The translations under genes and the position numbers were made by a program. DNA of 56,760 bases from Alphaproteobacteria bacterium (GTDB lineage: Bacteria > Pseudomonadota > Alphaproteobacteria > TMED109). The DNA is taken from the NCBI GenBank assembly GCA_022819905.1, contig JAJEGJ010000111.1, positions 1 to 56,760 on the forward strand. The letters run 5' to 3'. Below, in pieces: positions 49,627 to 49,929 of the stretch (the stretch's first letter is position 1; every line of letters begins with the position of its first letter). The notes beneath the pieces are model-generated. The model was not told the DNA's origin, ran no database searches, and saw only the letters and a program-made list of their open reading frames with translations.

Positions 49627-49929
49627 GCCGCCGTAGCTCAGTGGTAGAGCACACCCTTGGTAGGAATTGCCTGCCCGGCGAGAAATCGCCGGGGCTGAAC
49701 CGCTCAAATTCGGGGAACGCTGCGGGCCGGGAGGCCCATGCCAATCCCGAGCCAAGCTCGCGTCCGCGCGGGAAGGTGTAGAGACCAGACGGGCGGGGCC
49801 CTTCGCGGGTCAAGGGATGGTCCGGACCACCAAACGCCAGGTGCGCCCCGACGGGCGCTGCCGGCGGCCGCGAAAGCGGTAGTGGTGCGAAGGGTGGGGT
49901 CGAGTGTTCAATTCACTCCGGCGGCACCA
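49627..49929 (+). tRNA. tRNA-Thr(GGU), interrupted by a group I intron
   Basis: Exon 1 is 49627-49661 (35 nt) and exon 2 is 49890-49929 (40 nt, CCA encoded). Joined, they make a perfect tRNA: acceptor GCCGCCG pairs with CGGCGGC, the D stem is GCTC/GAGC, the anticodon stem is CACCC/GGGTG around loop TTGGTAA (anticodon GGT), the variable loop is GGGTC, and the T arm is GAGTG-TTCAATT-CACTC. The interruption falls directly after the third anticodon base (between 36 and 37). Without splicing the anticodon stem could not close, so the gene depends on intron removal. Confidence 0.95.
49662..49889 (+). ncRNA. Self-splicing group I intron (228 nt) in the tRNA-Thr anticodon loop
   Basis: The 5' exon ends in U (49661) and the intron ends in G (49889), as group I chemistry requires. 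P1 forms from exon GGU plus intron A against UGCC (49668-49671), with the U-G wobble at the splice site. P2 is an 8-bp hairpin with a GAAA loop (49674-49693). The core contains CTCAAATTCGGGGAAC, CCGAGCCAAGC and GAAGGTGTAGAGACCAGACG, matching from memory the conserved core of small bacterial tRNA introns (IC3 type, for example Azoarcus). P7 is GACCA (49783-49787) with TGGTC (49818-49822). P3 may be CCGC/GCGG (49700-49703/49793-49796). The P9 region is closed by ACCAC/GTGGT and includes two hairpins. There is no ORF, so it is not independently mobile. Confidence 0.93.

What the first reader, a model, noticed from the sequence alone, without database searches (positions are those of the whole stretch)
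49627..49929. Group I intron splitting tRNA-Thr(GGU) right after the anticodon
Seen directly: the two exons fold into a flawless tRNA-Thr. The 228-nt insert begins after U36 and ends in G. P1 with the U-G wobble, P2 with a GAAA loop, P7 GACCA/TGGTC and core strings such as CTCAAATTCGGGGAAC and GGTGTAGAGACCAGACG are all present. Established: bacterial tRNA introns of this small ORF-less class are known to me from tRNA-Leu(UAA), tRNA-Arg(CCU), tRNA-Ile(CAU) and initiator tRNA. I do not recall one in tRNA-Thr(GGU). If this is the only GGU-decoding tRNA, translation of ACC/ACU codons depends on a ribozyme.
Basis: partly seen in the sequence, partly recalled or inferred. Interest (0 to 1): 0.87.

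Follow-up and report, generated by a model that had tools for sequence, protein, structure and literature searches.

The report
Ribozyme intron inside a threonine tRNA
The only threonine tRNA gene that reads the common ACC and ACU codons in this bacterium is cut in two by a 228-base stretch that looks like a self-splicing RNA (a group I intron); the same arrangement occurs in dozens of other Alphaproteobacteria and standard gene finders miss it.

Summary
Window 49627-49929 is a tRNA-Thr(GGU) gene split after U36 by a 228-nt insert (49662-49889). Rfam's group I model hits the core only weakly (20.7 bits, below the 50-bit cut-off), but five homologous tRNA-Thr introns from other Alphaproteobacteria pass that cut-off over the full model. 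In 45 aligned homologues the group I fold (P1-P9 with the P3/P7 pseudoknot) is 96.1% paired, with 30 of 53 pairs changed on both sides; no control comes near. The IGS GCC matches the exon end GGU in 43 of 43 distinct introns, whereas introns in tRNA-Leu, -Arg and -Lys carry other IGSs that match their own exons. The intron is in all seven genomes of the genus searched. A scan of about 85,000 species found 46 true cases, all alphaproteobacterial as far as labelled, including named isolates. No uninterrupted tRNA-Thr(GGU) was found in 18 intron-bearing genomes, so ACC/ACU decoding probably depends on splicing. A second tRNA, Leu(UAA), carries a relative of this intron in the same genome. It is an ORF-less, IC3-like group I intron at a host tRNA I could not find reported: a new member of a known kind. 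Splicing itself was not tested.

The parts
49627..49661 (+). tRNA-Thr(GGU) 5' exon, ending with anticodon G34 G35 U36
   Evidence: ARAGORN with introns; spliced exons form tRNA-Thr(ggt)
49662..49889 (+). 228-nt group I intron, no endonuclease ORF
   Evidence: only short mechanical ORFs overlap it
49890..49929 (+). tRNA-Thr(GGU) 3' exon with encoded CCA
49659..49661 (+). P1, exon side GGU (U36 forms the U-G wobble at the 5' splice site)
   Evidence: paired in 99.3% of cells
49669..49671 (+). P1, internal guide sequence GCC; the UU just upstream can pair with A37-A38 of the 3' exon (P10)
   Evidence: GCC in 43 of 43 distinct Thr introns; P10 read from sequence
49674..49693 (+). P2 hairpin with GAAA loop
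   Evidence: all 8 pairs show changes on both sides
49700..49705 (+). P3 5' strand
   Evidence: 100% paired, 3 of 6 pairs with double changes
49710..49750 (+). P4-P5 domain
   Evidence: P4 invariant; P5 alternates CG/GC 24 to 21
49752..49776 (+). P6 domain
   Evidence: P6 pairs invariant
49783..49786 (+). P7 5' strand GACC (guanosine-binding helix)
   Evidence: 100% paired; last pair CG in 25 and UA in 20 sequences
49791..49796 (+). P3 3' strand
49797..49811 (+). P8 hairpin
   Evidence: 4 of 5 pairs with double changes
49819..49822 (+). P7 3' strand GGUC
49827..49885 (+). P9 region with inner GAAA hairpin at 49868-49879; intron ends with G at 49889

Best explanation
It is a small, ORF-less group I intron (IC3-like, the bacterial tRNA class) in the anticodon loop of the only tRNA-Thr(GGU) gene. 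The precursor folds so that exon GGU pairs with the intron's GCC guide. An external guanosine bound in P7 cuts after U36, the freed exon attacks after the intron's last G, and the exons join into tRNA-Thr(GGU). Shown here: the anatomy, the covarying fold, the guide match, the conserved site and the lack of an intact copy. Inferred: the chemistry and splicing in the cell.
For: Split tRNA and its exact boundaries. All 52 complete loci (near-identical copies included) give tRNA-Thr(ggt) when the exons are joined. RF00028 over its cut-off at 55.0-74.4 bits across model 1-253 in five homologues. Covariation: 30 of 53 pairs with double changes and 304 such cells against a shuffled mean of 93; slid structures at most 51% paired. 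The guide changes with the host tRNA: Thr GCC 43/43, Leu GAGT 13/13, Arg GGG 7/8, Lys GGAG 6/6. Present in all seven genomes of the genus searched (in one, G003, the gene is split over two contig ends). No uninterrupted copy in 18 intron-bearing genomes, while the same pattern finds intact copies in intron-free relatives. [quoted passage not shown]
Against: The window copy alone scores under Rfam's cut-off and is missed in a whole-genome search at E 10. No RNA data. MFE folding of the precursor alone does not return the group I core, as expected for a pseudoknotted fold.
Confidence: 0.95

Rival explanations
1. A degenerate, dead insertion: the gene is a pseudogene and another tRNA reads ACC/ACU.
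For: The weak Rfam score of the window copy.
Against: Conserved at 94-98% in the other genomes of the genus over the full length, with compensatory changes in P3, P7, P8 and P9 across the class. No intact GGU tRNA found. ACC plus ACT make up 354 of 695 Thr codons in window ORFs.
Confidence: 0.02
2. An intron removed by proteins (archaeal or eukaryotic type tRNA splicing endonuclease).
For: The position 36/37 lies in the anticodon loop, near the canonical site of such introns.
Against: Full group I fold with P3/P7 pseudoknot and conserved guide. Bacterial tRNA introns are not known to use that route (established knowledge).
Confidence: 0.01
3. A real group I intron that needs a host protein and may act as a regulatory checkpoint on threonine decoding, rather than splicing freely.
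For: It sits in an apparently sole-copy tRNA in 18 genomes; a tRNA-Leu(UAA) is interrupted in the same genome.
Against: No direct evidence for regulation; the sporadic spread over the class looks like a tolerated selfish element.
Confidence: 0.15

Closest known systems
tRNA-Arg(CCU) group I introns of Alphaproteobacteria (Agrobacterium, Bartonella BbgpI; PMC7717549)
   Same: Size class, core strings, insertion after U36, no ORF, missed by tRNA finders
   Different: Host tRNA and guide (GGG for CCU, here GCC for GGU); the last P7 pair is U-A in the Arg introns seen here, C-G in the window
[quoted passage not shown]
   Same: Same fold and core; one sits in this very genome (L032), about 79% identical over 139 bases
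   Different: Insertion after U34 and guide GAGT; in the tree the window's Thr and Leu introns are not sisters
Azoarcus tRNA-Ile(CAU) and cyanobacterial tRNA-fMet introns
   Same: Small IC3-class introns in tRNA anticodon loops (from memory and PMC8450103, PMC3984707)
   Different: Other hosts; not compared base by base here

Membership tests
Group I intron (Rfam RF00028) | Covariance-model score over the curated cut-off | tested here: inconclusive
   Window copy 20.7 bits, not met; five homologous tRNA-Thr introns 55-74 bits over the full model, met
Group I intron (Rfam RF00028) | P3-P8 and P4-P6 domains with P3/P7 pseudoknot | tested here: met
   P3, P4, P6, P7 100% paired; P3, P7, P8 with double changes
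Group I intron (Rfam RF00028) | P1 with conserved U-G wobble at the 5' splice site | tested here: met
   U-G in 44 of 45; the guide tracks the host exon
Group I intron (Rfam RF00028) | Terminal guanosine | tested here: met
   G at 49889 in the window; in the homologues too, but my search rule for the 3' site required a G, so they are not independent proof
Group I intron (Rfam RF00028) | Guanosine-dependent splicing | not testable with these tools
   Needs in vitro transcription or RNA data
Subgroup IC3 tRNA introns | Small ORF-less intron in a tRNA anticodon loop, with the core shared with known Arg(CCU) and Leu(UAA) introns | tested here: met
   193-294 nt; the shared core pattern finds Arg, Leu, Lys and Thr introns together; the subgroup name itself rests on established knowledge

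The most novel reading that the evidence does not exclude
One lineage of endonuclease-free introns has moved repeatedly between anticodon loops of different tRNAs (Leu, Arg, Thr, Lys) across Alphaproteobacteria, each time with a rewritten guide sequence, so that several sole-copy tRNAs, two in this genome, depend on ribozymes.
Probability: 0.4. Interest if true: 0.6.

Novelty: new member of a known kind. Interest (0 to 1): 0.47.

Why it matters
Tools and annotation pipelines leave this tRNA out, so genomes appear to lack ACC/ACU decoding. The family gives a natural series of the same ribozyme retargeted to at least five tRNAs at three positions, which makes intron transposition by guide change directly testable. 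It also shows bacteria with two apparently sole-copy tRNAs dependent on ribozyme splicing.

Tried and rejected
Within-genome copying of the Leu intron into Thr was considered and not supported: in the tree the window's Thr introns group with Thr introns of another family (96/92), not with the Leu introns of their own genomes. Several independent origins of Thr introns (SAR116 with Arg introns; L121 and L143 with Leu introns) are suggested by the tree, but AU tests do not reject a single clade (p 0.34, 0.33, 0.19) and long branches are involved. Phages: none found in viral contigs by pattern or in the phage collection by blastn. L134 (Polaromonas) matched the scan pattern but is not a tRNA. A second AGTGGTAGAGCA site in the genome (L045) is not a tRNA. 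The cyanobacterial 'group I introns' of 22-49 nt in PMC5733544 are too short to be group I introns and were not used. The key paper on alphaproteobacterial Arg introns (PMC93479) is not held.

Full report
Observation. The window holds a tRNA-Thr(GGU) gene at 49627-49929 interrupted after U36 by 228 bases. ARAGORN finds it only when introns are allowed. Joined exons give a regular tRNA-Thr(ggt), in the window and in all complete homologous loci. No homing endonuclease is encoded; only short mechanical ORFs overlap the intron.

Is it a group I intron? Rfam's general model scores 20.7 bits on the window, with the match confined to the P3-P7 core (model 50-157) and below the 50-bit cut-off. Five tRNA-Thr introns from other Alphaproteobacteria score 55.0 to 74.4 bits over the full model. 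I wrote the structure from the window sequence and counted its pairs on 45 homologues: 96.1% of cells pair, 30 of 53 pairs change on both sides, covariation score 0.387 against 0.140 in shuffles and at most 0.079 when slid. P3 and P7, the pseudoknotted core, are paired without exception; the last P7 pair is C-G in 25 and U-A in 20 sequences. Because the structure was read from the first row, the slid control is somewhat favourable, but the double changes are not explained by that.

Guide sequences. In Thr introns the exon end GGU faces GCC, with a U-G wobble at the splice site (43 of 43 distinct introns carry GCC). Introns of the same class in other tRNAs carry guides for their own exons: GAGT in Leu(UAA) 13/13, GGG in Arg(CCU) 7/8, GGAG in Lys 6/6. 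Counts of a short guide in other hosts are partly chance, since the test only asks whether the letters occur in the first 22 bases.

Distribution. All seven genomes of the genus carry the Thr intron, the other six at 94-98% identity (in G003 the gene is split over two contig ends). In another genus of the same family, G011, tRNA-Thr(GGU) and tRNA-Leu(UAA) are both uninterrupted. Among 385 genomes of the class, 31 carry the class core; the hosts are Arg(CCU), Leu(UAA), Lys(UUU), Lys(CUU) and Thr(GGU). A scan of about 85,000 species for interrupted GGU anticodons gave 47 loci, of which 46 are tRNA-Thr(GGU) introns (L146 needs a G-U pair in the anticodon stem; L152 is cut by a contig end). All 46 are labelled as Alphaproteobacteria or one of its groups, apart from two MAGs labelled only Proteobacteria; isolates include Acuticoccus mangrovi, Roseicella frigidaeris, Paracraurococcus ruber, Crenalkalicoccus roseus and Alkalilacustris brevis. 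The pattern was tied to the proteobacterial core spelling, so cyanobacterial-type introns would have been missed.

Necessity. The window genome's 45 tRNA hits include Thr(UGU) and Thr(CGU) but no intact GGU. A 3-mismatch pattern finds no intact copy in 18 intron-bearing genomes: its two hits are a GAU-anticodon tRNA-like site and a non-tRNA sequence. It does find intact copies in relatives without the Thr intron, nearly all of them exact matches. ACC and ACT are 354 of 695 Thr codons in window ORFs. The assembly is 96% complete, so an unassembled copy is not excluded for this genome alone, but it is unlikely for all 18.

Evolution. In the core tree, 40 of 45 Thr introns lie in one weakly supported group (81/86) that also holds the Lys introns. 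The window's genus groups with two genomes of another family (96/92). The Leu introns of the window genus form a separate group. Three SAR116 Thr introns fall with Arg introns, and L121 and L143 fall with Leu introns, which would mean repeated invasion of the same tRNA; AU tests do not reject a single origin.

Literature. The tRNAscan-SE 2.0 paper names fMet and Ile2 hosts and says the program was not designed to detect such introns (PMC8450103); the review of bacterial group I introns does not mention tRNA-Thr (PMC3984707). The nearest experiment is the Bartonella tRNA-Arg(CCU) intron, spliced in vivo and self-splicing in vitro (PMC7717549). No paper found reports a tRNA-Thr intron of this kind in bacteria; only open-licence papers were searchable, and most were seen as titles and abstracts only.

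Verdict. A real group I intron, by structure, at a host tRNA I could not find reported, widespread but sporadic in Alphaproteobacteria. The kind is well known, so interest is moderate; the sole-copy dependence and the retargeting series raise it.

Noticed in passing
L032 208-521 (G000:C96:291007-291320): The same genome has a tRNA-Leu(UAA) gene interrupted after U34 by a second group I intron; no tRNA-Leu(CAA) was seen among the tRNA hits, so UUA/UUG decoding may also depend on splicing.
   Followed up: partly
L114, L102, L105 (tRNA-Lys UUU); L099, L100, L101 (tRNA-Lys CUU): Introns with the same core also sit in tRNA-Lys genes of Alphaproteobacteria: after U34 in L114, after U35 in the others. 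I do not recall these hosts being reported.
   Followed up: partly
L210 1455-1753 (plasmid pCTX-M3, NC_004464.2): A tRNA-Leu(UAA) gene with a group I intron sits beside a small ATPase gene and the predicted resistance gene aac(3)-IId. Matches to the same kind of core occur in 1261 plasmid records, mostly of enterobacteria, with no feature annotated under most of the listed matches.
   Followed up: partly
L041, L042, L043: Odd tRNA-like genes in the window's genome (anticodon loops that fit no standard isotype well), two of them close together at C96:2947 and C96:4245.
   Followed up: no
L231 (G011): In a reduced-genome relative of the same family the intact tRNA-Thr(GGU) has a very different body sequence from the window's tRNA-Thr, so it may not be the orthologous gene.
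   Followed up: no
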